From: Campylobacterales bacterium
GTDB taxonomy: Bacteria > Campylobacterota > Campylobacteria > Campylobacterales > Sulfurimonadaceae
Direction of reading: 5' to 3'
Length of the DNA: 64,000 bases
Assembly (NCBI GenBank): GCA_026390115.1
Contig: JAPLGO010000012.1
Span: 124,001-188,000 of the forward strand
Part shown: positions 18,366 to 48,565 of the stretch, in pieces
Layout of the letters: each line of letters starts with the position of its first letter
How positions within the stretch are numbered: the stretch's first letter is position 1
Program-made: the position numbers and the translations under genes
Notes under the pieces: model-generated
Databases searched by the model: none
What the model saw: only the letters and a program-made list of their open reading frames with translations
Told to the model about the DNA's origin: nothing

Positions 18366-18409
18366 ATAATAGCAAATCAAAAAGAGTTAAGTGGTATCTC
18401 AATTTGGTA
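18366..18409 (-). promoter_or_regulatory. Phage promoter, copy 1 (upstream of giant gene)
   Basis: Minus strand TACCAAATTGAGATACCACTTAA-N15-TATTAT. Confidence 0.7.
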
Positions 18410-18417
18410 TGGTTAGT

Positions 18418-19341
18418 TTACTCGTAATCTTTCCAATTACTTTTTTTAGTATCTGTGGGTACTTCTGTTTTTTTAGCCTGAAGCTTACTGTACATATCAA
18501 TAGCTATGAGAGGAGTAACATTATATTGCTTTGCTATCTGTGCAACTCCTGTAGTTGTTGTCAAATATTCCGCTTGTTTATCCTTGCTCCAACTATCAAT
18601 ACTATTAGCATCAAGCCCCATTCCTTTTGCAACAATATTTGCTATTTTAGTATCGGTTTCTTGTGAATACTTATTAGACTTATCAGCTTCAGTTTTTAAT
18701 TGATTCTTCTCAGCATTAATATTATTCATCTCTCGTTTCACATCCAATAGTGCAGAAGCATTTTCCATTTTTGACTGTGCTGTTGCTAATTTACTTGCTT
18801 GAGTATCTTTAGTATCATAGTGTGCATCAAGTTTTGCCATGGTTAAACCGTCTGCATTTTTTACAAGAGCAGGATTTGCAGCTTCAAACTCTTTCATATT
18901 TTTATAGCTTCCATTTACGGCTGTTTTAGTAGCTTCATCATTAAATTTAACCTGTGCTAAATCATCTTGTGTTTTCCAAGCATCTTTTAATTTATCTCTT
19001 GCCGTGGTCGTAGGATTGTAAAAACTCTCTAGTGCATCTGTCGCATTTTTCTGTGCCTCTTTTGGTACAGTTCTATCAAGTGAGTATGCATCTTTGAGAA
19101 AGCTCTTATCTACTTTCGCCTCAGTATCCGAAGTTTTTGCAGTATCAAGCTTAAACTGTTCGTTTTGTAGTTGGAGTGCTGTAAGTTCATCTTTTTTGGC
19201 TTGAGTATTTGCATCACGCATATCCTTACCTATACTCACAAACGCATCGCCAAAGTTTTTAGCAGCACTTCCAGTATCGCTTGTAACACTATTCATATTT
19301 ATAGCGGCTGTATTTCCCTTAAAAGCATCATACCATCCCAT
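18418..19341 (-). CDS. Virion-module protein (307 aa), possible internal/ejection protein
   Basis: Ala/Lys/Asp-rich helical protein between portal and giant protein. Confidence 0.5.
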   Translation of the reverse strand: MGWYDAFKGNTAAINMNSVTSDTGSAAKNFGDAFVSIGKDMRDANTQAKKDELTALQLQNEQFKLDTAKTSDTEAKVDKSFLKDAYSLDRTVPKEAQKNATDALESFYNPTTTARDKLKDAWKTQDDLAQVKFNDEATKTAVNGSYKNMKEFEAANPALVKNADGLTMAKLDAHYDTKDTQASKLATAQSKMENASALLDVKREMNNINAEKNQLKTEADKSNKYSQETDTKIANIVAKGMGLDANSIDSWSKDKQAEYLTTTTGVAQIAKQYNVTPLIAIDMYSKLQAKKTEVPTDTKKSNWKDYE

Positions 19342-21212
19342 TATCTTACTCCTCTCATACTATCTAGTTGATTTTTATCTTGTTTTGCCTGTACCATCTG
19401 CTTACCGATAAGAGAGTTGCTAAAAGCTTTTTGTAAATCTATCTGATTTTTGTCAAGCATCGCTTTAGATTTTGTGTTATTAAGATTTGCTTGAGACTGC
19501 TTTAACATCATGTCAATATTTACATTTTTTGCTTTAAGCTGTGCGTTTTGCTGTGCCTCTGGTGAGTTTTGTTGCTGTGCGTCTCGTTGCTCTATTATCT
19601 GTCTTATTTTATTTGCACTAGGACTTTCACTATCTTTAAGTATATCAGGGATGAGATACTTCACAAGCTCAGGGTCGGTGCTTTGTAACACTTTTAGGAG
19701 TTCTACATTTTGGCGTAGTCGTTCACTGCTCATAGAGTTTGACTTTGGTTTAGCACTAAAAATCAAATCATACTTTCCAACATTTATACCATTGGAAACT
19801 TTTGGTTTCATAGAACCATCCGCAAGATACTCAAACTCTGTACCGCCATTTTCATTGCGTACCGCTTCATTCATAGTGATATAGTCTTGCATGTAATCTT
19901 CATCTATCACGCTGATAACTCTTTGCGTGTCGTAATACTGCTCTATAAATTTAACCATCTTCTGAACGATTTTCTTTTGCAGATTGTCACTCGAACCAAA
20001 GAACCTACTAAGACCGACTAGCCCTGTTTGTATTCTCTGCTCTTGTCCTACACCACTCATACGATTGTTTGCAGTTCCTAACATCTCTTTGTTTGAGTTG
20101 AGGAGTTCACTAATTTGCTGTCGTCCATCTATGATGATATTTAATATCTGTTGTATTTGAACATTTTGTTTTATGTCTTTTATCCCGTTTATATCTTCAA
20201 CCATAACTGTTGAGTTATCAAGGCTATACTCTTCGTTAAAAGCTTCAATGTTCTCATCTACAAGAGCCGTTCTGTTGATAAGTGTCTTATTATTTGCCAT
20301 CATATTTTGAAGTCGAAGTTTTGCATAGTTTATATGATCTTGTATAGGCATGATGTCACGATACAATCCCCAGTATTTTATCTTCCCGATAAAGTCTCTA
20401 TTTAAAAACTCTATCTCATAAGGAAAACCATCAAAGTTAAAAGGGCTTTCATCTTGCAGAAGTATCGTTGTGTTACTCCAAAAACAGTAGAAGTATTTAT
20501 CTTTACTGCTTGCTTCATCAAACTCTCTGTACCATGTGTAAGCAAGTAAAACTCTTTTGCGAATAATTCTATCTGCATACAAATCATCATCAATAATACT
20601 AGACATAAAGTTCATATTATTTAATTCTGCTACTTTCTCTTTAGGAAAACCAAGCCCTAATAAATCATCTCTGTCTATCCAAAAACAGCGAGTGATATAT
20701 CTTGCATCATCATTATAGTTTTTCCCGCGGGAAAATGGGTCAAGATACATCTCTATAGAGGGAACTTGTTTTATCTCAACATCTTTATGCTCTCGCTCAA
20801 ACTCATCTTTATCTCCATTTACACCAATACTTAGTTCCGCTATAGCCACGCCCTCTATGCTTAACTCATTGTCAAGTGCATCTACTTCTATTTCATAGTC
20901 GCTCACTTGTGTGATTGCTTTTATAAGTGCATTGAGCATATCTGCACCTGTACGGTCACGCTGTTGTCGTCCAAAAAGGCGGATGTCTATCTCTCTCTCT
21001 TTTTTAAATCCTAAAATAGCATTGTTATGTTTAGAGATATTATTTTCATACTGCTCAGGTTGTCCACGATTTGCAAGGATTTGTTTAATGGTGCTGTCGA
21101 GCTGGTCACCATTATAATACTCTCTTACTTTTTTGCTAAAAAGTTTAGTTTCTTTAAAATGGAGAGAGGACTCTTTGAGCCAATCTATAAGGATTCGAGT
21201 ATTAGTAATCAT
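19341..21212 (-). CDS. Portal protein (P22-like)
   Basis: 623 aa; REIDIRLFGRQQRDRTGADMLNALIKAI...VPSIEMYLDPFSRGKNYNDDARYITRCFWID; typical of podoviral portals. Confidence 0.8.
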   Translation of the reverse strand: MITNTRILIDWLKESSLHFKETKLFSKKVREYYNGDQLDSTIKQILANRGQPEQYENNISKHNNAILGFKKEREIDIRLFGRQQRDRTGADMLNALIKAITQVSDYEIEVDALDNELSIEGVAIAELSIGVNGDKDEFEREHKDVEIKQVPSIEMYLDPFSRGKNYNDDARYITRCFWIDRDDLLGLGFPKEKVAELNNMNFMSSIIDDDLYADRIIRKRVLLAYTWYREFDEASSKDKYFYCFWSNTTILLQDESPFNFDGFPYEIEFLNRDFIGKIKYWGLYRDIMPIQDHINYAKLRLQNMMANNKTLINRTALVDENIEAFNEEYSLDNSTVMVEDINGIKDIKQNVQIQQILNIIIDGRQQISELLNSNKEMLGTANNRMSGVGQEQRIQTGLVGLSRFFGSSDNLQKKIVQKMVKFIEQYYDTQRVISVIDEDYMQDYITMNEAVRNENGGTEFEYLADGSMKPKVSNGINVGKYDLIFSAKPKSNSMSSERLRQNVELLKVLQSTDPELVKYLIPDILKDSESPSANKIRQIIEQRDAQQQNSPEAQQNAQLKAKNVNIDMMLKQSQANLNNTKSKAMLDKNQIDLQKAFSNSLIGKQMVQAKQDKNQLDSMRGVR

Positions 21213-21220
21213 TTAAGTAC

Positions 21221-21511
21221 TTATGCAGTTAAAGCTGTAGTATCTATCGTATCTGTACCATCAGCATTTTTCTTTTTAGGCACAATAGTTGGAGTGAGTG
21301 GAGTCCAAGCATCATCTAAACTTTTTTGCTGTTTATCAAAGAGAGTATTTGCTCTATTATCTTTATTTACCTCATAATCAAACTGTTGCTTTTTTAGCTT
21401 ATTATTTTCTTTTGAATTTTCATAACTTCCCCATGCTCCAGCCAATGCACCAACTCCGCCTAAAATTCCACCTATACCGCCAGTGCCTAAGTTCTCATAC
21501 CATTCAGCCAT
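21221..21511 (-). CDS. Small virion-module protein (Gly-rich N-terminus)
   Basis: 96 aa, GTGGIGGILGGVGALAGAWGSYENS, between portal and adaptor. Confidence 0.5.
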   Translation of the reverse strand: MAEWYENLGTGGIGGILGGVGALAGAWGSYENSKENNKLKKQQFDYEVNKDNRANTLFDKQQKSLDDAWTPLTPTIVPKKKNADGTDTIDTTALTA

Positions 21512-21513
21512 TA

Positions 21514-22101
21514 TTAAATCCTTTGATAATTTGATGTTATATTTTTTGCTCTCATTTTCTGCTCTGTTTTTAGCTTATTTTTCTCAGCGTCATAGAGCTT
21601 TATATAGTGAACACTCAAAACCCTCTCTTTTGTATTACGAGTAGGTTTTTCATGTATCTCACTTAAAAATAGAAGTCGTAAAGCTTTAAAATAAACTGTT
21701 GGTATCTCAATATCACAATTACTATTTGCTAACTCTTTTTGATACTTCAACACTAAAGTAGCACTACAATCTTTTGTAGGAAGTGGATGTATAAGTAACT
21801 TATCTTCACTAAATGTATATGTTTTATTTTTAACATTGCTATAAAAGTTTTCTATATCTACAAAATTGTAGTGGATATTTTCTACTCGTAAAGCCATATT
21901 TTTCAAAGGTGTCAAATCTAAGTAGTACGCATCAATACCCTCTTTTATAGCTATCACACGGCTAGTTATAAAATAAGGTAAATCAAATTGCAAAGCTATA
22001 TAAGCTCTTTGCAATTTTATAAGCAACTCTTCATCTTTCCAATGCTCACTCTTCTCTTGTAAATCAGAACGAGTTTGTAAGATAAAGTCGCTTGTTTTCA
22101 T
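21514..22101 (-). CDS. Head-tail adaptor-like protein
   Basis: 195 aa, position next to portal; DFILQTRSDLQEKSEHWKDEELLIKLQRAY. Confidence 0.45.
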   Translation of the reverse strand: MKTSDFILQTRSDLQEKSEHWKDEELLIKLQRAYIALQFDLPYFITSRVIAIKEGIDAYYLDLTPLKNMALRVENIHYNFVDIENFYSNVKNKTYTFSEDKLLIHPLPTKDCSATLVLKYQKELANSNCDIEIPTVYFKALRLLFLSEIHEKPTRNTKERVLSVHYIKLYDAEKNKLKTEQKMRAKNITSNYQRI

Positions 22102-22103
22102 TT

Positions 22104-22535
22104 TTACTCACTCACTTCAGGTATTAAAGTCTCAGGTGTAACTTCAGGTATAACTCCGAAAGCTTCATCTACTTTTAGATCTTCAACAGGTGCAGTCTCT
22201 TTAATAGATACATCAGTGTCAGCTAAAGATGCTAAAGCAACTAAAAGCTCTTGATTAAGTCTTTCATTGTCAGCTTTCAGATTTATAATTTCATCTTCAA
22301 GTTCATTATGATTATCATCATTTTTAACATCTTCTTTTTTAAAAGCGATAGTATCTACCATAACAAACTCGCCAAAACCTTTTTTTACAAGATTAAAAGC
22401 AGTGACTTTATCTACGATAACAATATCTCCTTTTTTAAGAGTAGGCTTTGGACGAGCTAAGGAGGTATTAAATACCTTAGCCTTAGCTCCAACATATTTG
22501 ATAGCACTAAAGGGCGCATAATGTACAGTAGCCAT
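22104..22535 (-). CDS. Phage structural-module protein
   Basis: MATVHYAPFSAIKYVGAKAKVF... is a likelier start than 22634, which overlaps the upstream gene. Confidence 0.5.
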   Translation of the reverse strand: MATVHYAPFSAIKYVGAKAKVFNTSLARPKPTLKKGDIVIVDKVTAFNLVKKGFGEFVMVDTIAFKKEDVKNDDNHNELEDEIINLKADNERLNQELLVALASLADTDVSIKETAPVEDLKVDEAFGVIPEVTPETLIPEVSE

Positions 22536-22545
22536 CCCAATAGAC

Positions 22546-22935
22546 CTAGTTGTATTCTTGCTTAGAAACAGCAAGTTTTGCATACTCAACGGTAACAGTT
22601 GCACTTCCAGTTGCACTAGCAGAACCAACCACATCTATAACAATAGCCATAGATTGCGTAGCAGTAAGTTGACGGCTATTAAAACCGATACCTTTTACTG
22701 CATTTACAGTCGTTTGAGGAACAAAGCGAACTAAATCCCCCTCGATGCCAACGCTGATTTTATTATCAGCATTCGCAAAAGCAGTATCAACAGTAACATT
22801 TACATCCGTTACACGAAATCCCTCTGCAATACCCATAAAATCATAAGTCTTACCAACATCCGCACCAGTAACTACAAAAGATATAGTTCCACGATTTCTA
22901 ATTTCACGATTTTTTCTTTTAACTGTAACAGCCAT
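22546..22935 (-). CDS. Putative capsid decoration / head protein (129 aa)
   Basis: Beta-rich Ala/Thr/Val protein directly downstream of coat gene. Confidence 0.45.
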   Translation of the reverse strand: MAVTVKRKNREIRNRGTISFVVTGADVGKTYDFMGIAEGFRVTDVNVTVDTAFANADNKISVGIEGDLVRFVPQTTVNAVKGIGFNSRQLTATQSMAIVIDVVGSASATGSATVTVEYAKLAVSKQEYN

Positions 22936-22945
22936 AACTTACTCC

Positions 22946-24109
22946 CTACTTACCAGTTGATGCAACAACAGCGATAACACCATAGTCTTTACCATCAAAG
23001 ATACTATCAGCGAGTATCCCATCATTCATACTTGCATCATATTTTGTTTTAGCAAAACCATATACTCTGTCAATACCCGCATTCATTCTACGAGGATCAT
23101 CTTTATCCGCCCAGTCATAATACGCTATCCCTTGGTCAACAACTATGTAACCAGCACCAGCACCTACTAAAAGGTTAATCTCTGTTTCTTGCCCTGCAGC
23201 ACCTGCATATTGAGTTAAATCACAAGACTTCACATTTCCAAAACCATTAAATTTTGATTTAGATGTTAAGATACCTGATTCACGGTCTGTTTGAGTTCCT
23301 ATATCTAGTAAAAGAACACCATCCCAAAGTCCTAATGCACCATTGAAAATCGGGTTTGTTTTACCACGCTCCGCAGCTTCTAAACGAGCCGCCGCCCAGT
23401 TCGCATCATTTTTAATATGTTTCGCTGTATTTGTACCAACGAACATAGCAAAATATTTAACTTCATCGTAAAAACCTATATTTTCATTTTGAGTTGTCAT
23501 AACTGGAATGATAGGTGGAACAGTTGGATTACCTGAAGCATCTAAACCTAGTAAAGCTCTGCTTTTTGCTTCCTCAACATCCGCAGTTGTAAGAACATCC
23601 AATTTTGTTAAATTTGCAGTGGTAGCATCACTATGATGTCCAGCAACAACAATATTTGTACAGTTGGCAGACCATGCTGAAAAAGCAATTTTGTCAAACT
23701 TTACAGTTCCCCAGTTCGTTAATTTTGTTTTTGAACGAGTTTTAAAAGTGCTTGCACTTCTTTGATTTACGATACTTTCAGTAGATGGAACAGCATGCTG
23801 AAATCTATCAATTTTTATAAACTGTTTAATAGACTTCATCTCTTCACTGCTTGCAGAAAAATCCACATTTCCAACAGCTCCACTCTCAATAAGTGCATCT
23901 TCCATCGCTACGCCAACAACACTCCCAAGTTCACATGTTTTTAAAACACTACGAATAACACTTGTTACATCATCCTCACTTGCAGCGATAAACGGCTGTA
24001 ACTTACTTTTTTTAGTAATATCCTTTGTAATACTACTGCTATACGCTACTCTTGTATCAGCATCAGATAAAAAATCTCCCGCTGACAATCCACTAAAAAC
24101 ATTTGGCAT
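22946..24109 (-). CDS. Major capsid (coat) protein, N4 gp56/P22-like
   Basis: MPNVFSGLSAGDFLSDADTRVAYSSSITKDITKKSKLQPFIAASEDD...; AAGGAAAAG RBS favours this start over 24148. Confidence 0.7.
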   Translation of the reverse strand: MPNVFSGLSAGDFLSDADTRVAYSSSITKDITKKSKLQPFIAASEDDVTSVIRSVLKTCELGSVVGVAMEDALIESGAVGNVDFSASSEEMKSIKQFIKIDRFQHAVPSTESIVNQRSASTFKTRSKTKLTNWGTVKFDKIAFSAWSANCTNIVVAGHHSDATTANLTKLDVLTTADVEEAKSRALLGLDASGNPTVPPIIPVMTTQNENIGFYDEVKYFAMFVGTNTAKHIKNDANWAAARLEAAERGKTNPIFNGALGLWDGVLLLDIGTQTDRESGILTSKSKFNGFGNVKSCDLTQYAGAAGQETEINLLVGAGAGYIVVDQGIAYYDWADKDDPRRMNAGIDRVYGFAKTKYDASMNDGILADSIFDGKDYGVIAVVASTGK

Positions 24110-24162
24110 ATCTTTTCCTTGTTTTTTTTTGTAATGTCGTAAAGACACTCCTTAAATTTTGC

Positions 24163-24245
24163 CTACCCCAGTATAGATAGTACATAGTAAAGCGACACAT
24201 TGGGGTGGGCTTCTTTACTATTACTACCTATATTGAAGTAGGGTA
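24163..24245 (-). promoter_or_regulatory. Long imperfect inverted repeat upstream of the coat gene
   Basis: CTTTACTATGTACTATCTATACTGGGGTAGGC (RC of 24163-24194) versus CTTTACTATTACTACCTATATTGAAGTAGGGT (24214-24245). Confidence 0.55.
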
Positions 24246-24250
24246 AAACC

Positions 24251-24469
24251 CTACAATCCTAAAGCTAGTTTTAAATTTCCATCTCCAAGTATCTCCATAC
24301 TTTTGGCAGCATCTTTATTTGACTTAATCATCTCCTGCACCTCTTCAAGACGCTGTTTATCTTTAAGTATTTTAAACGCACTTTCTATAGTGCGAACATC
24401 GTTTTGAATTTCCCACTCGCTTCTTTTACCTTTTTCACTCTTCTCTTCAGTTACTACATTATCATCCAT
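24251..24469 (-). CDS. Small protein upstream of coat
   Basis: 72 aa, charged helical. Confidence 0.5.
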   Translation of the reverse strand: MDDNVVTEEKSEKGKRSEWEIQNDVRTIESAFKILKDKQRLEEVQEMIKSNKDAAKSMEILGDGNLKLALGL

Positions 24470-24488
24470 TTTATTCTCCTTTATTTAG

Positions 24489-25223
24489 TTACAGCCCTAA
24501 AGCTTTCTTTAATTGTTCGTCATGGGATGTTAATCCATGGTCAATATTTGCACTGTTAACACTCTGTTTTCTTGCATTGTTTACATTTGGAATATTTGGA
24601 GCTTTTTGTGTAGTGATATTTGTAGGGTTTGCAGATAAAAACTTTTTATAAGTGTTTTCATAAACATCTTGATAGGATTTAGAACCTTGAATTATTTTAT
24701 CTTGTTCAGATTTACTTAAATCATTTGTATAATAACTCAACATCTTTTCATGATTGTAATCAGGATATTTACTACTTACTTCCATAATCGCACTTTGACG
24801 CTCATAAACAAGCTCAAGCTCTTTTTTCTCTTCTTGAAGAGAAGTAATTTCTGTAGCCTTAGAGTGCTTTGTCACATACGCATTCGCTTTTGTAGCGACT
24901 AACTTCATATAAGCAGGTTTATCGCTGAACTCTAGCTCTTGTTCTGATTCGCTTAGTTCTGTTTCTAAGTTATCATAAAAAGCACTTGCATCTACAGTCT
25001 GAGACTCAAGTGCTTCAATTTGTGAGTCAATCTTTGCAATATCTTTATTAATAGAAAGTTGCTCTTGTGTTACAAGGATAGCAGTAGGCTTAACAACTTC
25101 AGCAGGTATTTCTTTATTTTCATCTGTAATAAGTTCAGCAGAAATCTCTGCGCTTTCATTCAGTCCTAAAATCTCTTGCATAGTATCTATAATACTCTCT
25201 TCTGTTTCGTTCCCCATAGTCAT
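24489..25223 (-). CDS. Putative scaffolding protein
   Basis: 244 aa, acidic/coiled, directly upstream of coat. Confidence 0.55.
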   Translation of the reverse strand: MTMGNETEESIIDTMQEILGLNESAEISAELITDENKEIPAEVVKPTAILVTQEQLSINKDIAKIDSQIEALESQTVDASAFYDNLETELSESEQELEFSDKPAYMKLVATKANAYVTKHSKATEITSLQEEKKELELVYERQSAIMEVSSKYPDYNHEKMLSYYTNDLSKSEQDKIIQGSKSYQDVYENTYKKFLSANPTNITTQKAPNIPNVNNARKQSVNSANIDHGLTSHDEQLKKALGL

Positions 25224-25252
25224 GCCTTTAAATATAAATATTATTTAAAGGT

Positions 25253-25296
25253 ATTGTATAGAGAAAAAAAGAGTTAAGTGGTATCTCAATTTGGTA
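25253..25296 (-). promoter_or_regulatory. Phage promoter, copy 2 (upstream of scaffold/coat)
   Basis: TACCAAATTGAGATACCACTTAA-N15-TACAAT on minus strand. Confidence 0.75.
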
Positions 25297-25303
25297 GTTT
25301 TAA

Positions 25304-27244
25304 TTAATATTCATAAACTTTATAAACTTCATTATAAAAACTATAGCTTGAATTCATTGCATAAATAGCTTTATCTTTGGTTACTATATTACTAGTATCT
25401 TGTGATAATAAATCAGGTGGAATAGGTGCATTTAGTAAACTATAAATACTATTTAAACTACCTGCAAGTTTCAAAAAGCTACTAAAAGATATATTACTTA
25501 TAGTTTCAGAAAACCCTATCTGCTCCGCTGCCGCCCATCCAGTCGCACCCTCTCCGTTTGCTATATAGGTAACATCCCAAGCACTTTCATAGGCGATATC
25601 ATAAACTTGTGATATACCAACGATGATGCCAGCAAGAGTTAAAGCCTGAGTTCCAAGTCCAGCAAACATTTGACCTTGAATACTCATACCGCCATATTTT
25701 GAAGTTACCGTTAGAGCAGCCATAGTAAGAGCTATCGGCAAAGGATTCCAAAAAAGTATAGAAAAGATAATTCCAGCTGCTACAATAACAACAATAAAAA
25801 CAGCTTCCAGCAGTTGTCCTAAGAGAGAACCACCTAGCCAACCACCACTTTTTTTAGCTTCTGAACCAAGATATACAGACATAAAAAGTAAATCCGAAAA
25901 AGCTTTTTTTGGCATACTTACAGCTACATTATATTTTAGATAACTCTTTTGAAATTTTGCAAAAAGTGATGAGTTTCCTGTTGTATAAAAAATATCATGT
26001 ACTGCTGAAAAACTCCCAAGATAAGTTACAAGAGAGGTAAAAATAAGCATCTCTCTTGTTGGCTCTATTGGTATGATACTTCCGCCAACCATCCCTTGAA
26101 ACGCTTCATTTTCTCTAGCAGCCGCATAAGAAGCTTTCACTCCTGCATATTGTGATGCAAAGGTGGATGCAAAAGCAGAAGAGGAGAGATATGCATAGTT
26201 TATTTTATTTATCAAAAGTGGAGTTATAAGAAGCGTTACTGGATTTGGTGTATAATCCCACTGACTCCCAAAGTTAAAATGAATGATATACTGATATCTC
26301 TTATAGATAACATCTTGCATCCCACCGCCTATTTCATCCCAAACATAATTTTGTTCTACTCTATCGGGAAGTGGAAGTATCTCTAGCGTTATACTGTTAA
26401 AACAAGCATCCAAATAGTTTGTATATACACCAAGCGTTTTAAATACTGCATGTAAGTTCTCGTTACCTATACCAACTTCTATACCATCTACTTGCTCATA
26501 AGTAATCGTAGTCGTATCAATTATCGGCTTTCCATCTGCATCCAAAACATTCTCTTTTATAAAAACAGGGTTTCCATCTGCATCCACAGTATGCGTATCT
26601 ACTAAATGCGTAATATAGGTATAGGTTCTTATCTCTTTGTTCGTTGGCAGTGCCGTAAATTTTAGAGTTGGAGCATAAGAGCCTATATCGCTTGAGATAT
26701 AATCCGCTGTATCTACATCAATATTTGGCTTAAGTTGGCGAAGTTGTGCAAGAGAGAGATTTGAAATAGATACTCCATCATGTTTTGCATCCACGATAAG
26801 AGAGAGAGCTATGCTATCTACTCCGTAGGGGGTTATGGAGTTTTGTATATTTTGCATCGCATTTTGTACAACAGTAGTATTACTAAAATCTAAGCTATTT
26901 TTAACACCTGATAAATCAACATAAAAATAGCTTACATTATCAAAGTTTGATACTAAATAATCATAATCCGCACCAATGGTTTTACAGAAGAGTTTTGTAT
27001 ATTTAAAATTTACAGAAGCATCACTAAAAAGTATAATCCTTTCATTTCCAAAAACTTCAACACCGTTGATATTTTTTTTAGCCATCAAGTCATTCCAGCT
27101 ATCACCAAAATAATTTATGCTTAGTCGTCCCCAGCACTCTTTAAAAGTTCTATAAAACTTAGAGTATTGTAAGTTTTCACTCATTATAGCAATCTTCATA
27201 GACTGATAAGGACTATTATTAACTAAGTATCTTATCTTTGCCAT
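25304..27244 (-). CDS. Large tail/virion protein with C-terminal hydrophobic region
   Basis: 646 aa in structural cluster; FIVVIVAAGIIFSILFWNPLPIALTMAALT. Confidence 0.45.
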   Translation of the reverse strand: MAKIRYLVNNSPYQSMKIAIMSENLQYSKFYRTFKECWGRLSINYFGDSWNDLMAKKNINGVEVFGNERIILFSDASVNFKYTKLFCKTIGADYDYLVSNFDNVSYFYVDLSGVKNSLDFSNTTVVQNAMQNIQNSITPYGVDSIALSLIVDAKHDGVSISNLSLAQLRQLKPNIDVDTADYISSDIGSYAPTLKFTALPTNKEIRTYTYITHLVDTHTVDADGNPVFIKENVLDADGKPIIDTTTITYEQVDGIEVGIGNENLHAVFKTLGVYTNYLDACFNSITLEILPLPDRVEQNYVWDEIGGGMQDVIYKRYQYIIHFNFGSQWDYTPNPVTLLITPLLINKINYAYLSSSAFASTFASQYAGVKASYAAARENEAFQGMVGGSIIPIEPTREMLIFTSLVTYLGSFSAVHDIFYTTGNSSLFAKFQKSYLKYNVAVSMPKKAFSDLLFMSVYLGSEAKKSGGWLGGSLLGQLLEAVFIVVIVAAGIIFSILFWNPLPIALTMAALTVTSKYGGMSIQGQMFAGLGTQALTLAGIIVGISQVYDIAYESAWDVTYIANGEGATGWAAAEQIGFSETISNISFSSFLKLAGSLNSIYSLLNAPIPPDLLSQDTSNIVTKDKAIYAMNSSYSFYNEVYKVYEY

Positions 27245-27247
27245 TTT

Positions 27248-30278: not shown

Positions 30279-30280
30279 CT

Positions 30281-31081: not shown

Positions 31082-31083
31082 AG

Positions 31084-31395: not shown

Positions 31396-31396
31396 T

Positions 31397-33205: not shown

Positions 33206-33721
33206 CTATATTATTCCTTTTTTTGATAAGTACATATCCATCATCTGCATAATATCTATGGTTGATTGAGTATTAAGTATTTCATCTGCATAATAAGAGT
33301 AAAGCTCTACTACATCTTTTTGAGCTTTTGTAAAGTATGGATTTTCCCCAGAGAAATAAATGTCTAATTTTTCTACAAAAGAACTATCTAATGTTTTTGT
33401 ATCTATATCTATAATATTTTTAGTACATCCAATTCTCATTAAGGAGAGCATGTCATGAGATATATTTTCAAAGGATGAAGGAACTTTAAAAAGAAAGTTA
33501 AGATTATTAGGAAGAGTAAGTTTATAATTTGAAAGGGTATCTATGTGTTCATTTTCTAAAAGAGGTATTTCAAATATTTTAGAATCCAAAATAGTTGTGC
33601 TATCAAGCATGTATCCACTATTGCTTAGAAGAAGTCCGCCAACACTATTTATTAGCTGTAGTTTAATAGTATTACCAATAACTAATCCAAACTTTGCAAT
33701 ATTTAGCGTAACTGTTCTCAT
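33206..33721 (-). CDS. Phage structural-module protein
   Basis: 171 aa, preceded by promoter copy 3. Confidence 0.4.
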   Translation of the reverse strand: MRTVTLNIAKFGLVIGNTIKLQLINSVGGLLLSNSGYMLDSTTILDSKIFEIPLLENEHIDTLSNYKLTLPNNLNFLFKVPSSFENISHDMLSLMRIGCTKNIIDIDTKTLDSSFVEKLDIYFSGENPYFTKAQKDVVELYSYYADEILNTQSTIDIMQMMDMYLSKKGII

Positions 33722-33744
33722 AACCTACCTTTTAATTATGAGAA

Positions 33745-33788
33745 ATATTAGCTATTTATTTTTGCTTAAGTGGTATCCCAATTTGGTA
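33745..33788 (-). promoter_or_regulatory. Phage promoter, copy 3
   Basis: TACCAAATTGGGATACCACTTAA-N15-TAATAT on minus strand. Confidence 0.75.
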
Positions 33789-33791
33789 GTT

Positions 33792-35348: not shown

Positions 35349-35351
35349 AGG

Positions 35352-35927: not shown

Positions 35928-35957
35928 TTTTTACTCTCCTTTTTTTTGGTATAAATT

Positions 35958-37307
35958 TTAAAACTCTGGCATACTGTAGTGCTGTAGTTCTTTTATACTA
36001 TCTGTATTAGGGATATCCTCATAAGCAGTCTCTATCACTTTTGCAGGTGGTCTTCTAAACTTATCAAGTGCCTTTCCTACATACCCATTTGCATCTAGCT
36101 CCACTCTATAAAAGTCACTTGTTTGAGGTACAAACATCAAGTGCTGTATAGGGTGTTTATGTGTATCTTTATTTTTAACCCAAATCACATGTCTAAGCTC
36201 ACTCTCCTCATCTTTTGATTTTACTTTTGTAATATGAAACCAAACATATCCCTCATGGTCTGCATCCATAGAACCCTTTACGCTTACCATAGATGATTTT
36301 AAATCCTCTTTTGAACTTTGTACAATGATAATAATAGGGATTTGTAACTCTTTGCTCAAAATTCCAAGCTTTACAAATTTTTCAGATATGCGTCTTTCAT
36401 CCGTTTTTAGTAGAGGATTATTATTGGATACACGCATAGCACTATCAATACAAACTAGCTGTATGCCATAGAGTTTATGTTGCAAGCGTATCTCTGCACA
36501 TATTGCATTGATGTCATAAATATTGTCAAAGGTATGTATATTGTCTATATTTCCGCTAAATGTTCCGTCCTCTTGTTGCGACTCTACATTTTCATCGTAC
36601 ATATCCTCGCCAAACTCTAAACTTCCAAACATTACAGGATGAGTTTTTGAAACATTTTCTATAATGCGTGTCAATATGTATGTTTTACCGCTCTGTTTTA
36701 AACCGCTTATATAAAATAATCCCTCATTTCTTATACCGCTATTGCCATGCTTATCAGTCAAAACTGTATCAATAAACGGCACACCTGTTTCTATCCTAAC
36801 CGCAGGAGGCTTCAACTTTCTAAGTTTACGAACTTCGCTCAATCTTTTTGTAGATGAGCCTTTGTTAAGACTTGCATAGCCGTCAATTTGATTCTGCATC
36901 ATTTGACTGATTGCCGCACTTGATATATTTTCATCTGCCAAAGCTTTTGTGATGTCAGCATTGAGCTTATGTAACATCTGCTTGTGGTAGTTCTCTTTTA
37001 AAGATGCGATGTGTTCCATGAGAATATTTTGAGGCACTTGCTTTTGAGCCATGATGTCAAGCAGCATCTCTTCGGCATGTGGAACTGCCGCTTTTTTCAT
37101 GTAAGGAAGTATCACACCATCATCAAACGCACGCCCACCCTCATAGCAAACACTCATCACTTCAAATATAGAGCGATGTGCATCATTCACAAACCAATCT
37201 TTACTTATGCCTGTGTTCATTACCACCGACAAATCAACTCCGCCAAACTCATTTGCTGAGAGCATCGTTCCTAAAATCAAACCTCTTACATTGTCTAAAT
37301 CATTCAT
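35958..37307 (-). CDS. DnaB-like replicative helicase
   Basis: N-terminal DnaB-like domain, P-loop LKQSGKT, LVCIDSAMRV, IIIIVQSSKE. Confidence 0.75.
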   Translation of the reverse strand: MNDLDNVRGLILGTMLSANEFGGVDLSVVMNTGISKDWFVNDAHRSIFEVMSVCYEGGRAFDDGVILPYMKKAAVPHAEEMLLDIMAQKQVPQNILMEHIASLKENYHKQMLHKLNADITKALADENISSAAISQMMQNQIDGYASLNKGSSTKRLSEVRKLRKLKPPAVRIETGVPFIDTVLTDKHGNSGIRNEGLFYISGLKQSGKTYILTRIIENVSKTHPVMFGSLEFGEDMYDENVESQQEDGTFSGNIDNIHTFDNIYDINAICAEIRLQHKLYGIQLVCIDSAMRVSNNNPLLKTDERRISEKFVKLGILSKELQIPIIIIVQSSKEDLKSSMVSVKGSMDADHEGYVWFHITKVKSKDEESELRHVIWVKNKDTHKHPIQHLMFVPQTSDFYRVELDANGYVGKALDKFRRPPAKVIETAYEDIPNTDSIKELQHYSMPEF

Positions 37308-37316
37308 TTTTTACCC

Positions 37317-37502
37317 CTAAGCCATTATGTTCATTTCGTGTTGCGAGAGCCAAGCATCTATTTTGGCACGACTATAGTAGATAAAACCACCGATTTTTGA
37401 ATAGGGTATCTTTTTTTTAGAGCGATAAGTCGCTTGTGTACTAAGCGACATACCAAACTCTTTCTCGAAATTTTTTGGATTTAACCACTCGTTATTTTTC
37501 AT
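37317..37502 (-). CDS. Excisionase/MerR-type HTH protein
   Basis: 61 aa; YSKIGGFIYYSRAKIDAWL. Confidence 0.6.
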   Translation of the reverse strand: MKNNEWLNPKNFEKEFGMSLSTQATYRSKKKIPYSKIGGFIYYSRAKIDAWLSQHEMNIMA

Positions 37503-37948
37503 TAGTAAAACCCCACTATCAAATCACCAAGTAGTTTTACTCGTATTTCTGGGTTCGATATAGATTTTAAACCTGCATAAAATGGCTGATAATTTTGCAG
37601 TAAAAACTTAAATTCATTATCAATTTTAATAAATTGAACATCTCCTATTTCTAAAAAATCAAATAATTTACTATGCGGATTTTTTTTCATAATATCTATG
37701 CGGTCACGGATATTTGATTTATTTATTGACATCCTATCTGCTAGTTCACCTACTTGAATATAATCATCCAAAACAGTAGTATTTTTTTGAGCTATATTAC
37801 ATAAACACTCTCTGTAAATATATGCTGTATGTCTAATAATTACTATTTTATCATGATACATTTTTTTAAGTTCACTCACGGTATATGATAAATCTCTTAA
37901 TTCTTCAATCTCTTTTATTAAAACTAAACCATCAAGAAATCGTATCAT
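37502..37948 (-). CDS. Hypothetical phage protein
   Basis: 148 aa, 4-nt-type overlaps with neighbours. Confidence 0.5.
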   Translation of the reverse strand: MIRFLDGLVLIKEIEELRDLSYTVSELKKMYHDKIVIIRHTAYIYRECLCNIAQKNTTVLDDYIQVGELADRMSINKSNIRDRIDIMKKNPHSKLFDFLEIGDVQFIKIDNEFKFLLQNYQPFYAGLKSISNPEIRVKLLGDLIVGFY

Positions 37949-38577
37949 TACACATACATCCCATTTTTATCTTCGCCGACATTTGGATTAAATTTTTTAT
38001 AATTTCTAACCCAATTTCTAAATGCGCTTAACCAATTTTTGAAGCCATTTCCTTTGCTGTTATGATGATCAACAAATTTGTCAAACTCTTCACTTGATAT
38101 GCTATCTTTAACACATATATCTATAGCATACTGTTTCAGTAAAGCATAATATTCAGGAGTAAGAGCTGTAACTTTAGTAATTTTATTCAAATCAAAAAGT
38201 GGTTTTTTCTTATTTTTTATATCAGGAACTTGTATATTAGAGTTATTAGTACTTGAAATATATTTATCAGCGAGTGGAGTAAAAGCATAAGCAGGCGTAG
38301 AATGGTTATCATTCCATACAAGTAAACCAACATCAAGAAGTTCCGTAAGTATCTTACTTAGAGTTCTTGTACTTATTGGGGCATGTGGAATTTGTTGCAA
38401 TATCATATTTCTATATAAGACCGTATAAGTTAGGTTATTTATCTCTATCTTTTTGATATAAGAAAGAACCATAAGCTTTTTCATAACTCCAAAAATAGTA
38501 GAAGCATTCCAGCTAATACCAAGTTCTTCACATAGAGTTTGGTCAGTCGTTACATAAAACATAAATCCAACAGCCAT
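37948..38577 (-). CDS. Phage replication initiator / replisome-organizer-like protein
   Basis: Winged-helix N-terminus and C-terminal GFKNWLSAFRNWVRNYKK motif. Confidence 0.55.
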   Translation of the reverse strand: MAVGFMFYVTTDQTLCEELGISWNASTIFGVMKKLMVLSYIKKIEINNLTYTVLYRNMILQQIPHAPISTRTLSKILTELLDVGLLVWNDNHSTPAYAFTPLADKYISSTNNSNIQVPDIKNKKKPLFDLNKITKVTALTPEYYALLKQYAIDICVKDSISSEEFDKFVDHHNSKGNGFKNWLSAFRNWVRNYKKFNPNVGEDKNGMYV

Positions 38578-38578
38578 A

Positions 38579-38779
38579 CTAATTCGCCGCCATTTGATTT
38601 TTTAAAGGTGGTAATCCAGTTAGCTTAAAGAAGTCATTTAAATTTTCTTCACTTACTCTTATCTTGCCATGAATTCTAAAATATTTAAGTCTTTTTGACT
38701 TGAAGAGATATTTTAATGATTTTGTATTTTTTTTCAGTATAGATTCAACTTCTTTTTCTGTAAAATAATTTTCACACAT
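38579..38779 (-). CDS. Small HTH protein
   Basis: 66 aa; EKEVESILKKNTKSLKYLFKSKRLKYFRIHGKIRVSEENLNDFF. Confidence 0.55.
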   Translation of the reverse strand: MCENYFTEKEVESILKKNTKSLKYLFKSKRLKYFRIHGKIRVSEENLNDFFKLTGLPPLKNQMAAN

Positions 38780-38822
38780 AAGCTTTAATACTCCATATAT
38801 TTGATATAATATACTAATTCTA

Positions 38823-38836
38823 GGATAATGTTATCC
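38823..38836. promoter_or_regulatory. Candidate repressor operator
   Basis: Perfect palindrome GGATAATGTTATCC in the divergent region upstream of the CI-like gene. Confidence 0.5.
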
Positions 38837-38895
38837 GACAGTCTATATAGTTTATACTTAAATATGTATTAAAAAAAATTAAAAAAAGGATATTT

Positions 38896-39573
38896 ATGCA
38901 AGATTTATCAGATAGAATAAAAATGGTACGAAAAGTAATTGGTGTCTCTCAACAAGGTCTAGCCGATATAATAGGCTGTACTGACGGTAAAATAAAAGCA
39001 TGGGAACAAAAAACCACCCTTGTTATGAAACCAAAGGATATTTTAGTTTTAGTCAACAAATATGGCTTTAACTATGAATGGTTAGAAGATGGAACAGGAG
39101 ACATGCTCCAAGTAGATGGAGATATAACACTTAAAGATATTGCGACTATAACATCTATGCTCAACAAAAGTATTTCTATCCCATACTACAAAGACATACA
39201 CGCCTCTGCTGGATATGGATGTACGAATGGTAATTGTAAACCGTCCTATATATCTCTCTCTCCTGATATGATGCCTAATAAAAGCAGTGATGCTATGGAT
39301 GCAATCAGAGTAACTGGCAATTCTATGAGTCCAACGATAGAAGATGAAGATGTTATTTTTATTGATAAAAGTGATATTACACCTAAAGATGGAAAGATTT
39401 TTGTAGTTTATTTATGTGATGAAGTTTATGTAAAAAGGCTCTTTATAGAACCTAAAACAAAAGAGATATTTTTACACTCAGATAACCCACTTTTTCCAAA
39501 GATGGAAACTGATTGTGAAGACTTTAAAATAATAGGAAGAGTTATAGCAAATATGCAGATAACAAAGCTCTAA
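38896..39573 (+). CDS. CI/LexA-type repressor with S24 peptidase domain
   Basis: HTH plus DIHASAGYGC..., GNSMSPTIEDEDVIFID, VYVKRLF. Confidence 0.88.
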   Translation: MQDLSDRIKMVRKVIGVSQQGLADIIGCTDGKIKAWEQKTTLVMKPKDILVLVNKYGFNYEWLEDGTGDMLQVDGDITLKDIATITSMLNKSISIPYYKDIHASAGYGCTNGNCKPSYISLSPDMMPNKSSDAMDAIRVTGNSMSPTIEDEDVIFIDKSDITPKDGKIFVVYLCDEVYVKRLFIEPKTKEIFLHSDNPLFPKMETDCEDFKIIGRVIANMQITKL

Positions 39574-39609
39574 TTTATGGCTTTTAAAGAGGGAAAAAGA
39601 GGGTCTATA

Positions 39610-39634
39610 TATATCTTTTAGAATAAAAGATATA
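39610..39634. terminator. Perfect inverted repeat downstream of CI-like gene
   Basis: TATATCTTTTA-GAA-TAAAAGATATA, 11-bp arms. Confidence 0.45.
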
Positions 39635-39652
39635 GGTTAAGTATATATGTGG

Positions 39653-39710
39653 GCAAAATTTGCACGGGTCGGAGTTGACAATCGGTGCAAATTTTGCACG
39701 GGTCGGAGTT
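39653..39710 (+). repeat. Two 24-bp direct repeats, 34-bp period
   Basis: GCAAAATTTGCACGGGTCGGAGTT (39653-39676) and GCAAATTTTGCACGGGTCGGAGTT (39687-39710). Confidence 0.85.
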
Positions 39711-39935
39711 ATTAAAATAGAGTCTATAATTTCGCCGCCATTTGATTTTTTTTAAGTACTTTTTTGAGTCTATTTCAAATAGTCATAGGGCAATTCTCTC
39801 ATAGGTAGTTCAGAGGAAGTGGGGCTTGGGGAATGGGGCTACCCCCTAAAAACTGAGAAACTAAAAACTGAAAAAGTGGGAGTTTTTGAGTAGATGTGTG
39901 AGTGGTAGTTCTGCACAAGATGAGAGCTGCAAACA

Positions 39936-40020
39936 CTCTAACCTTAAGCCGTTTTGGCTCAAAAATGCTCTCTAACCTTAAACGATGCAGTAAACTTAAA
40001 TAATTACACTCTAAACTTAA
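39936..40020 (+). repeat. Three CTCTAA(C/A)CTTAA iterons
   Basis: 39936-39947, 39970-39981, 40009-40020. Confidence 0.7.
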
Positions 40021-40124
40021 TTAAAACATATTAAAATAAATAAATTAATATCTTTTTGCACATTTTCCCTGATTTTCTCCCCCTTGCTCTCATTGACCAC
40101 TTCTCACACAAATCTATGTAATGT

Positions 40125-40175
40125 ACACATAAATATGTGTGATTTACACATAAATATGTGTGATTTACACATAAA
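40125..40175 (+). repeat. 21-bp iterons containing a palindrome
   Basis: ACACATAAATATGTGTGATTT x2 plus partial ACACATAAA; core CACATAAATATGTG. Confidence 0.85.
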
Positions 40176-40691
40176 AGTGATGCAGTTCTGCTCCAACTCT
40201 TCCAAACTTTCCCCAGAGAAAGTGCATCCAAGACCAAACATAACAACCGAAAACCTCCGTAATTTCCGAAAATTCCCACACCACCGCACTCACCCACCAT
40301 TTCCCTCCGTAAATCTGCCTCAGTTCCCATGTCAAAACAACTCTTTCACCTTTTTATATTAAAGGCTACTCTCTTACAATTCTTTTATCTTCAAAAAAAT
40401 CGGAAACTCTCAAAAAACAGAAAAAAAAATCGCAAATGGCGGCGAATTGTTGAAGTTGGAGATTTTGGGGAGATTTTGGCGAAGTGGTGGAAAAGTGGCG
40501 GTTTTAGGTGTTTTGTGTAGAAAAAAGAGGCTCATATCTGCTCCGTGAGCCACGATAATAGTTTTGCGTGTACATTTACAAGGACAAAGAGTTTTTGAGA
40601 GAGAGGCTATGAAGATTTATGATTTGACCATATTCCTGACATCAGGAAAATGGTTTCGGCATGTGGAAGTTCTGGCATGTGGAAAGATTGT

Positions 40692-41066
40692 TTAATATTT
40701 TGTATCAAACTCTTTAAGCTCTTTTATTCTAATAAAATCATTCAAATCAAGCCATATAAAATCATCTTCATATTTAAACTCTAAATTAATATATCTTTTT
40801 TTTACCTTATCAAGAAAGACATTATAATCCATATCTGTATAACCCTCTTTATAAATATTTCTGAGCATGTTATCTGTAAACTTTTTACTATGCAGATTTG
40901 AATAAACCTCTACGCTTCCATTTTTTAGTTTCATTCTTGATGTTGGAATGCCTCTTTTATCAAAGTTATATTTATATTCTTCTTTCGTGTAATATAAATA
41001 TGCTAATAAAAAAACGAACAACATCCCAACGGCAAATACTACTTTTAAAATATACTCTTTGCCCAT
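40692..41066 (-). CDS. Single-TM protein of unknown function
   Basis: 124 aa, N-terminal TM, charged C-terminal domain; paired with HTH gene. Confidence 0.5.
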   Translation of the reverse strand: MGKEYILKVVFAVGMLFVFLLAYLYYTKEEYKYNFDKRGIPTSRMKLKNGSVEVYSNLHSKKFTDNMLRNIYKEGYTDMDYNVFLDKVKKRYINLEFKYEDDFIWLDLNDFIRIKELKEFDTKY

Positions 41067-41070
41067 ACTC

Positions 41071-41292
41071 TCAACCCTCTCTATTCCTTAAAATAGGTGC
41101 TACAGCATCCGCAACTCTGTCTAAATCTTTTGCTTTGATGTAGTTTTCTAGCCATGAAGTTACCCAAAGTGGAATATTTTGTGTACTGCTCCAATTTGCA
41201 ACTGTACTATAGGCAAGACCTGTTATTTCTACAAATTCTTTCTTATTTAATCGAGCTTCTTTCAATTTTATTATAAATTCTTCATTATTCAT
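41071..41292 (-). CDS. Small Cro/CI-type HTH regulator
   Basis: 73 aa; LNKKEFVEITGLAYSTVANWSSTQNIPLW. Confidence 0.6.
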   Translation of the reverse strand: MNNEEFIIKLKEARLNKKEFVEITGLAYSTVANWSSTQNIPLWVTSWLENYIKAKDLDRVADAVAPILRNREG

Positions 41293-41332
41293 TATTTTAC
41301 ACCTACTTTTTAAGTATCAAATTATACCTAAA

Positions 41333-41349
41333 TATACTAAATAAGTATA
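41333..41349. promoter_or_regulatory. Candidate operator of early promoter
   Basis: TATACT-AAATA-AGTATA palindrome next to TTGACA (41356)-17-TATAGT promoter. Confidence 0.5.
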
Positions 41350-41549
41350 AAGTGCTTGACATAGTTATAATTTTAGTATATAGTTTTGAATATATATACT
41401 TTTAAGGTATATATAAAAAATCTTAAAAATGTTGAAAATCGTAAGTCCTCATCGCAGGTCTATCGGATAGTCCCCGAACAAATCAGCTAAAAAAATACTT
41501 CATTGAGCGGTTTTAGAACTGCTCATAAATTATTTAAGGAAACATAAAA

Positions 41550-41939
41550 ATGAAATACTACCAACATAAAGAAGCAAGACAACAAGAAATGACGGCTCTA
41601 TTTGATAAACACGGTGTAATTTTTGCATTTGGTAAAGAACAACTTGACAATGCTAAAAAAGATGGAATTCAATACTACTCATCAGGCTTTGGGATGTTTA
41701 TACCAACAAACAACTATAAACTATTTAACGAAGAGTGTGCAGCACAACAAGAGAACTTTATTATAAAGGCTAAAGAGCTTTTTACAGCAAATCAAATCAT
41801 CACTTATGAGCTAGGAAACTATGAGTATTGCATCAATGAAGATTTAAGAGATACGAGAGGAGCTTTAGAAGAGTTCAACTTTAGTGATGAAGAGTACAAA
41901 GTAGCAATTAAAGAGTATATGCAAAACTGTGATTACTAA
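41550..41939 (+). CDS. Early phage protein (129 aa)
   Basis: First early rightward ORF, AAGGAAA RBS. Confidence 0.5.
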   Translation: MKYYQHKEARQQEMTALFDKHGVIFAFGKEQLDNAKKDGIQYYSSGFGMFIPTNNYKLFNEECAAQQENFIIKAKELFTANQIITYELGNYEYCINEDLRDTRGALEEFNFSDEEYKVAIKEYMQNCDY

Positions 41940-42175
41940 AAGAACATTAAAAATAAAAAAAGGAGGAACAAAAAATGTCTAAGCTCATAAAAAAAGCGGA
42001 CTCTCTCTTCGTCAGATTTGAAAACATGATAGAGAGAGCAGCGAACAAACTTTTCTAATAAAAAAGAATTTTTCATCAAGTTACACACCGCAAATGTGTA
42101 GCTGATTGAGAAATTATACTCAAACAAAGTTTATTAAAAGCTTCAAAAAAACACACCAAAAAGGAGAATAAAAAA

Positions 42176-42331
42176 ATGCGTTTTTCAACTATGAGAGAGA
42201 TTAAGAAGATGTTTGCATGTGAACATGTAAAAGTTGTAGATGGATTGCTACATGTAGAGTATTACGATGCACACACAGGCAAACGAATGAGCAAAGCAAA
42301 AGCTATGAGAATTTTGGACGGAGATTACTAA
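42176..42331 (+). CDS. Small early protein (51 aa)
   Basis: MRFSTMREIKKMFACEHVKVVDGLLHVEYYDAHTGKRMSKAKAMRILDGDY*, AAGGAG upstream. Confidence 0.45.
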   Translation: MRFSTMREIKKMFACEHVKVVDGLLHVEYYDAHTGKRMSKAKAMRILDGDY

Positions 42332-42332
42332 A

Positions 42333-42980
42333 ATGAAAAAAAAAGAACTCAAAAATAAAATAAGGCTTGAGAACGGAGAGGCACAAGTAGGCAGACACAT
42401 TGGAACTGCTAGAGCCAAAAAACCAATCCTAAAAAAAGAGTTTGACCACCTCATAAACGCTACCAACCGTAGCCTAGAGTTGCAGTCACAAACGAAGATG
42501 AAGTTCATACGAGCTTTTACACTTCTCTATCTTACAGGATGCCGTATCAGCGAGATAGCAAAACTCACAAGCATAGACATAGAGCAGATGATACAAGCAA
42601 ACGAATACTCTTTGACGAACTCCACCAAAACAAAAAGTGCAAGACTTATCAGTTTTAGTGAGAACCTAGAGCAAATCGAGTTCTTAAAAAAGATACTTCC
42701 ACATGCCAACGGCTATCTGTTCCCACGCAACAACTCAAAAGAGCCGATGCACACGCAGAGCTTAAAACTCATGATGAACAAATACATTCAAAAAGTTCTA
42801 GGCACTCTCTACTCTACACACAGTTTCAGAGCAGGATACATCACAACCGCCCATCAAATCGGGCTAAGTCTCGAACATATCCGTCAAGACATAGGACACG
42901 CAAGTATCGCTACAACAGCAAGATACGCAACAGTTACACATACAGAAATCGCAGCAGCGAAGAACCAAAGAGTTTGGTAA
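42333..42980 (+). CDS. Compact tyrosine recombinase (second recombinase of the element)
   Basis: TGCRISEIAKL ... HSFRAGYI ... IGHASIATTARYA. Confidence 0.8.
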   Translation: MKKKELKNKIRLENGEAQVGRHIGTARAKKPILKKEFDHLINATNRSLELQSQTKMKFIRAFTLLYLTGCRISEIAKLTSIDIEQMIQANEYSLTNSTKTKSARLISFSENLEQIEFLKKILPHANGYLFPRNNSKEPMHTQSLKLMMNKYIQKVLGTLYSTHSFRAGYITTAHQIGLSLEHIRQDIGHASIATTARYATVTHTEIAAAKNQRVW

Positions 42981-42991
42981 ATAAATTAACT

Positions 42992-43035
42992 GCACCAAAT
43001 TGAGATACCACTTAATCCAATCCAACATATTAAAA
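42992..43035 (+). promoter_or_regulatory. Phage promoter, copy 4 (upstream of parA)
   Basis: CACCAAATTGAGATACCACTTAA-N15-TAAAAT. Confidence 0.7.
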
Positions 43036-43060
43036 TTACAGCAGACAAAGGGGTCGGCAC

Positions 43061-48564: not shown

Positions 48565-48565
48565 G

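What the first reader, a model, noticed from the sequence alone, without database searches (positions are those of the whole stretch)
18366..43035. Four-copy conserved promoter: (T/C)ACCAAATTG(A/G)GATACCACTTAA - exactly 15 nt - TAnnAT
Copies at 18409-18366 (-), 25296-25253 (-), 33788-33745 (-) and 42992-43035 (+) each sit upstream of a gene start in the gene's orientation. Each 23-bp box is followed after exactly 15 nt by a -10-like hexamer (TATTAT, TACAAT, TAATAT, TAAAAT). The box contains two ACCA elements 13 bp apart. This looks like a dedicated activator-dependent phage promoter controlling the giant protein, scaffold/coat, structural gene 33206-33721 and, unexpectedly, parA.
Basis: partly seen in the sequence, partly recalled or inferred. 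Interest (0 to 1): 0.82.

Follow-up and report, generated by a model that had tools for sequence, protein, structure and literature searches.

The report
Phage late promoters with coevolving operator
A virus integrated in a Sulfurimonas chromosome switches on its three late gene blocks and its partition/primase block through four copies of one control sequence; about 30 related viruses keep the same four promoters but each has its own version of the sequence, probably read by a viral relative of the bacterial regulator CheQ.

Summary
Four 23-bp boxes, each followed after exactly 15 nt by TAnnAT, are the only copies in the 2.64-Mb genome. They lie in a prophage (5156-53095) that splits a tRNA-Met gene. 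In 30 related phages, 59 homologous sites hold the same places: before gene 33206, the scaffold-like gene, the giant gene and parA. The 15-nt spacing is kept, but half-sites are alike within a phage (1.2/10 mismatches) and differ between phages (3.7/10; 0/5000 permutations). At parA the site is a ~30-bp inverted repeat, centred near -42 if transcription starts ~7 nt past the -10. CI is also unlikely: phages with the same half-site carry unrelated repressors. Best candidate: the 148-aa early-operon protein 37502-37948, related to CheQ by fold (PDB 6a51, E 3e-6) and by profile to Sulfurimonas CheQ homologues. Its recognition helix is hypervariable. Binding and direction of regulation are untested; covariation favours it only modestly.

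The parts
18387..18409 (-). box G (operator) upstream of the giant gene 5980-18336
18366..18371 (-). -10 hexamer TATTAT, 15 nt after box G
25274..25296 (-). box S (operator) upstream of the scaffold-like gene and head operon
25253..25258 (-). -10 hexamer TACAAT, 15 nt after box S
33766..33788 (-). box T (operator) between the terminase gene and gene 33206
33745..33750 (-). -10 hexamer TAATAT, 15 nt after box T
42993..43015 (+). box P (operator) upstream of parA; in several relatives a near-perfect ~30-bp inverted repeat
43031..43036 (+). -10 hexamer TAAAAT, 15 nt after box P (TATAAT in several relatives)
37502..37948 (-). 148-aa CheQ-like protein with winged-helix domains: best candidate for the regulator that reads the boxes
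   Evidence: present in every relative that covers the locus; AF2 pLDDT 95.5; Foldseek PDB 6a51 CheQ E 3e-6; profile match to chromosomal CheQ homologues
37948..38577 (-). 209-aa replication-initiator or helicase-loader-like protein in the same operon; rival regulator candidate
   Evidence: PHROGs replication initiation; Foldseek top hit DnaD, E 1.6e-3
38896..39573 (+). CI-like S24 repressor, divergent from the early leftward operon
5980..18336 (-). giant 4118-aa polyvalent protein (SNF2/ResIII helicase and LPD38 domains), downstream of box G
24489..25223 (-). scaffold-like gene heading the head operon (major head protein 22946-24148, portal 19341-21212)
   Evidence: scaffold role inferred from position
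33206..33721 (-). 171-aa conserved gene heading the tail operon; no family hit
43061..43690 (+). parA, first gene of the box P block
43671..44564 (+). parB (ParB_N and HTH_ParB)
48548..50182 (+). DnaG-type primase on the same strand downstream of parAB

Best explanation
The four boxes are operators of one phage-specific, DNA-binding dimer and form part of sigma-70-type promoters. The dimer sits on a ~30-bp inverted repeat: two 10-bp half-sites with a 10-bp gap. Its promoter-proximal half lies where the -35 would be, and the dyad is centred at about -42, the class II activator position. It turns on the three late operons (giant protein, head, tail) and the parA-parB-to-primase block. The regulator is most likely the 148-aa CheQ-like protein at 37502-37948, made from the CI-controlled early leftward operon. 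Each phage lineage has drifted to its own operator-regulator pair while keeping promoter positions and spacing. Shown by sequence: the sites, spacing, conservation, within-phage identity and dyad. Inferred: activation rather than repression, control of the early operon by CI, and the identity of the regulator.
For: Unique four-copy box in the genome. 59 sites in 30 phages; 33 of 36 non-T sites have TANNNT at exactly +15 against 0-6 at other offsets, and after re-placing four mis-picked sites all 36 do. Half-sites differ by 1.17/10 within a phage and 3.71/10 between phages, 0/5000 permutations. Inverted-repeat score 7.3/10 at parA against 3.0 shuffled. The 148-aa protein is present in every relative that covers the locus, is confidently modelled as a winged-helix protein, matches CheQ by fold, and its profile reaches chromosomal homologues of CheQ. 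Its recognition-helix entropy is 1.82 bits against a mean of 1.44, while ParB has 0.52 against 1.12 and the 61-aa HTH protein 0.86 against 1.19. Mantel partial r 0.35, p 0.006 for the 148-aa protein.
Against: No expression or binding data. Covariation is modest: column-level and window-level scans do not single out the 148-aa recognition helix, and windows of the 209-aa replication protein, helicase and terminase score similarly. The left half of T and S sites is only weakly palindromic (4.2 and 3.7 of 10). The 148-aa protein could be a replication or accessory factor. The CheQ link is remote (profile E about 1e-4 to 6e-5; hhalign probability 78%), and it is not known here which CheQ residues contact DNA.
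Confidence: 0.6

Rival explanations
1. The boxes are ParB-binding sites (dispersed parS), as in the linear phage-plasmid N15, and ParB itself assists late transcription.
For: Four dispersed sites, one next to parA; parB is in the same phage; N15 has a precedent for partition genes assisting late expression (Ravin, Rech and Lane 2008, listed in the references of PMC11652158; the paper itself is not held).
Against: The ParB recognition helix is nearly invariant (0.52 bits) while the boxes vary widely. ParB distance does not track box distance (r 0.08, p 0.36). A different palindrome, TTTCCCNNGGGAAA, is invariant in the family, sits in portal, primase and recombinase coding sequence in different frames, and occurs only twice in the genome, both in the prophage.
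Confidence: 0.06
2. Another DNA-binding protein of the same early operon reads the boxes (209-aa replication-initiator-like protein, 61-aa or 66-aa HTH_17 proteins).
For: The 209-aa and 61-aa proteins are present in all relatives that cover the locus; the 209-aa protein has an N-terminal winged helix and also correlates with the boxes (Mantel r 0.24, p 0.001).
Against: The 209-aa protein looks like a replication initiator or DnaD-type loader. The 61-aa recognition helix is conserved and shows no correlation. The 66-aa gene was found by sequence in only part of the phages (n=7).
Confidence: 0.2
3. The CI-like repressor, or another lysogeny repressor, binds the boxes and keeps late and par promoters silent.
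For: A dimeric repressor would bind a dyad overlapping -35; for phages with a CI homologue the partial Mantel r is 0.44 (n=11, p 0.034).
Against: G241 has the same half-site TACCACTTAA as the window but an unrelated 119-aa repressor in that place; that repressor resembles the one in G235, whose box is quite different. The window CI-early operon intergenic region carries no box.
Confidence: 0.07
4. The boxes are core sites of the small tyrosine recombinase 42333-42980 encoded just before parA.
For: A ~30-bp inverted repeat with ~10-bp arms resembles a tyrosine recombinase site and lies 12 nt after that gene.
Against: Recombinase distances do not track box distances (r -0.21). T and S copies are near single half-sites, all copies keep a fixed distance to a -10, and recombination between them would delete essential genes.
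Confidence: 0.02

Closest known systems
CheQ of Campylobacter jejuni (PDB 6a51; Cha et al. 2019, doi 10.1111/mmi.14144, cited in PMC9665402)
   Same: Same overall fold as the 148-aa protein (Foldseek E 3e-6, TM 0.65/0.62 over nearly the full length); a small transcriptional regulator of Campylobacterota; Sulfurimonas chromosomes carry a CheQ homologue that the phage profile reaches.
   Different: CheQ acts with CheP on the chromosomal cheVAW operon; the phage protein lies in a phage early operon beside replication genes, shares low sequence identity, and would control four phage promoters.
Activator-dependent phage late promoters (for example Mu C-dependent and P2 Ogr-dependent promoters; own knowledge)
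   Same: A few separated late promoters without a good -35, sharing an operator near or overlapping -35, apparently switched on by one early or middle phage protein.
   Different: Different regulator fold, different operator (~30-bp dyad), and the regulon also includes parA-parB-primase.
N15 Sop system with dispersed centromeres (Ravin et al. 2008, listed in PMC11652158)
   Same: Phage with partition genes and several dispersed partition-like sites.
   Different: Here the promoter boxes appear not to be the centromere; a separate palindrome TTTCCCNNGGGAAA is the parS candidate, and this prophage is integrated.
Sulfurimonas prophage SNW-1 (PMC11290706)
   Same: Temperate tailed phage of Sulfurimonas.
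   Different: 37 kb, TerL of the 5-prime cos (lambda-like) group by that paper, and annotated with a CII protein; no parB or promoter mention found in the text.

Membership tests
Activator-dependent (class II) sigma-70 phage promoter | Operator overlapping the -35 region at a fixed distance from a -10 hexamer | tested here: met
   Box-N15-TAnnAT at all four window sites; 33/36 non-T sites in the phage family automatically, 36/36 after re-placing four sites
Activator-dependent (class II) sigma-70 phage promoter | Operator shared by all promoters of the regulon of one phage | tested here: met
   Within-phage 1.17/10 versus between-phage 3.71/10 mismatches, 0/5000 permutations
Activator-dependent (class II) sigma-70 phage promoter | Transcription depends on a phage activator | not testable with these tools
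   No transcription data
CheQ family | Overall CheQ fold | tested here: met
   AF2 pLDDT 95.5 and Foldseek to 6a51 E 3e-6, TM 0.65
CheQ family | Significant sequence relationship to CheQ | tested here: inconclusive
   Phage profile finds chromosomal homologues at E 6e-5 to 1e-3; one of these matches CheQ at 2.4e-10; hhalign E 1.8e-5 but probability 78%; no direct match of the phage profile to 6a51
CheQ family | Binds promoter DNA | not testable with these tools
   No binding data
ParB-parS site | Site specificity follows the cognate ParB recognition helix | tested here: not met
   Recognition helix nearly invariant, boxes highly variable; Mantel r 0.08
Tyrosine recombinase core site | Full inverted repeat of recombinase half-sites at each copy | tested here: not met
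   Only P and partly G sites are palindromic; T and S are near single half-sites

The most novel reading that the evidence does not exclude
A whole phage family uses a viral branch of the CheQ regulator family as its late-gene activator. The operator-regulator pair has diversified into about 20 different operators among 30 phages while the four promoter positions and the 15-nt spacing stayed fixed, and the same regulator couples partition and primase genes to late gene expression.
Probability: 0.5. Interest if true: 0.72.

Novelty: new variant of a known kind. Interest (0 to 1): 0.62.

Why it matters
Late gene control appears not to have been described for phages of Campylobacterota (my one literature search on this found nothing; only open-licence papers are held). 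The finding gives a concrete regulon and a candidate regulator family with a host-chromosome relative (CheQ), and offers about 20 natural operator variants with their cognate candidate regulators, so the DNA recognition code of this poorly known winged-helix family can be tested directly by swapping pairs. It also separates two things that look alike in the sequence, the promoter box and a likely parS.

Tried and rejected
Exact box search in IMG/VR found nothing, because the box diverges between phages; homologous promoters were found through terminase, capsid and 148-aa protein relatives instead. Box as parS, as CI operator and as tyrosine recombinase site: considered and disfavoured. Three-mismatch hits in other Sulfurimonas genomes (G014, G033, G130) were isolated single hits and not pursued. 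Column-wise and window-wise covariation did not pin down specificity residues. Pfam, PHROGs and NCBIfam give no family for the 148-aa protein; none of the phage records held matches it. The distant relatives G195/G198 have a different repeated late box, [CG]CCTATTTTAT-N15-TAnnnT; G195 has no 148-aa homologue and G198 only a chromosomal CheQ-like gene at E 0.01; their regulator was not sought further. The distant homologue-bearing G454 showed no clear repeated box.
Full report
The observation. The 23-bp box is present exactly four times in the window and nowhere else in the 2.64-Mb genome at up to three mismatches (expected 0 in shuffles of the window). In all four copies a TAnnAT hexamer follows after exactly 15 nt and a gene starts shortly downstream in the same direction. 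Each box lies 3-12 nt past the stop codon of the preceding gene. Only the fourth coordinate is off by one.

Where it is. The boxes lie in a prophage. The core GCTCATAACGG occurs at 5156-5166 and 53085-53095, and joining the flanks restores an intact tRNA-Met(cat) gene, while the prophage carries its own complete tRNA-Met at 5221-5297. The integrase is 51858-52985. A genome of the same genus (G128) is the Sulfurimonas MAG JAUZRZ010000050.1 (49,904 bp contig), so the host is most likely a Sulfurimonas. The leftward early operon starts next to a CI-like S24 repressor and runs 66 aa, 209 aa, 148 aa, 61 aa, DnaB-like helicase, 191 aa, terminase. Late genes follow leftward: tail genes from 33206, head genes from 24489, then a 4118-aa polyvalent protein. 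Rightward lie the small tyrosine recombinase, parA, parB and, further on, a DnaG-type primase. Operon extents are inferred from gene order and strand.

Relatives. Terminase, capsid, recombinase and 148-aa protein searches gave about 30 related phages, mostly IMG/VR contigs plus two contigs of related genomes, G142 and G128. Gene order is conserved. The homologous promoter places carry the same architecture: 59 sites in 30 phages, the window's included. Seed half-sites came from the 33206-type (T) site wherever a phage had one, so T sites are not counted; for a few contigs without a T site the seed was read by eye from another site. Of 36 remaining sites found by matching the half-site, 33 have TANNNT at exactly +15; other offsets have 0-6. 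Four sites had been placed wrongly by the script; re-placed by hand, all 36 fit. That correction is post hoc, but the automatic figure alone is far above the background.

Operator structure. Half-sites agree within a phage and differ between phages (1.17 versus 3.71 mismatches of 10, 0/5000 permutations). Examples: TACCACTTAA (window, G241), CCCCACTTAA (G230, L016), ACCCACTTAA (G142), GTATAGTTAA (G235, L070), CACTAGCTAG (L022). At parA the site is a ~30-bp inverted repeat (G241 TTAAGTGGTA-N10-TACCACTTAA); palindrome scores fall from P 7.3 to G 5.7, T 4.2 and S 3.7 of 10, with shuffled values 2.5-3.0. With a start about 7 nt past the hexamer the dyad centre is near -42, the class II activator position (own knowledge of CRP-type promoters). 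Full-length relatives show these same four sites; the few extra hits lie at places that are not conserved.

Who reads it. ParB: recognition helix entropy 0.52 bits versus protein mean 1.12, no correlation with boxes. An invariant palindrome TTTCCC-NN-GGGAAA is found in 2-5 copies in most of the longer relatives, in the portal, primase, recombinase, giant and other genes; in primase and recombinase it is the most conserved 12-nt window and in portal rank 5 of 1788, in different reading frames. In the host genome it occurs only at 20721-20734 and 49529-49542 of the window, both in the prophage. This is the better parS candidate. CI: G241 shares the window half-site but has an unrelated repressor, similar to that of G235 whose box differs. 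Recombinase: no correlation. The 148-aa protein is in every relative that covers the locus (its G128 copy is interrupted by a stop); its model is confident (pLDDT 95.5) and its best PDB match by fold is CheQ of C. jejuni (E 3e-6). Its profile finds a ~155-aa chromosomal protein in about 30 genomes of the family (E about 1e-4), one of which matches CheQ at 2.4e-10. Its putative recognition helix is hypervariable (1.82 bits versus 1.44). Whole-protein covariation is the strongest for this protein among those present in all phages (partial r 0.35, p 0.006, n=22; 0.23 in a second set-up) but not exclusive: the 209-aa protein also correlates, and finer scans do not isolate the helix. The 209-aa protein looks like a replication initiator or DnaD-type loader.

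Mechanism. Induction releases the early operon; the 148-aa protein accumulates, binds the four operators, and recruits RNA polymerase at promoters that lack a consensus -35, turning on three late operons and the parA-parB-primase block. Repression at the parA site, which has the strongest dyad and in several relatives a consensus TATAAT, is not excluded. Confidence: regulator-dependent promoter operator 0.93; activation 0.8; 148-aa protein as reader about 0.65.

Known or new. Activator-dependent late promoters are a known kind. The operator, the candidate regulator family and the extent of operator drift appear new; one literature search on Campylobacterota phage late promoters found nothing, within an open-licence library.

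Noticed in passing
20721-20734 and 49529-49542: Palindrome TTTCCCNNGGGAAA, invariant across the phage family inside coding genes (portal, primase; recombinase and giant gene in relatives), absent from the rest of the host genome: probable dispersed parS of the phage ParB.
   Followed up: partly
5156-5166, 5221-5297, 53085-53095: The prophage is integrated within the anticodon region of a host tRNA-Met gene (core GCTCATAACGG) and brings a complete replacement tRNA-Met.
   Followed up: yes
L033/L034 and L035/L036 (G198, G195): More distant prophages have their own repeated late box, [CG]CCTATTTTAT-N15-TAnnnT in 3-4 copies, with no phage 148-aa homologue found: possibly the same architecture with a different regulator.
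   Followed up: partly
5980-18336: 4118-aa polyvalent protein with SNF2/ResIII helicase domains and LPD38.
   Followed up: no
42333-42980: Small 215-aa tyrosine recombinase with only the catalytic domain, conserved next to parA in relatives that cover the locus, in addition to the integrase 51858-52985; role unknown (possibly dimer resolution).
   Followed up: no
L132:1480-2160: In a Sulfurimonas genome (G129) an ORF next to a CI-like gene fuses an HTH_17 domain to a CheQ-like 148-aa domain.
   Followed up: no
15787-15812 and 48145-48170: 26-nt exact direct repeat TAAAATTGTCCGTTCAGGAGTGACAA, one copy inside the giant gene, one in the rightward early region.
   Followed up: no
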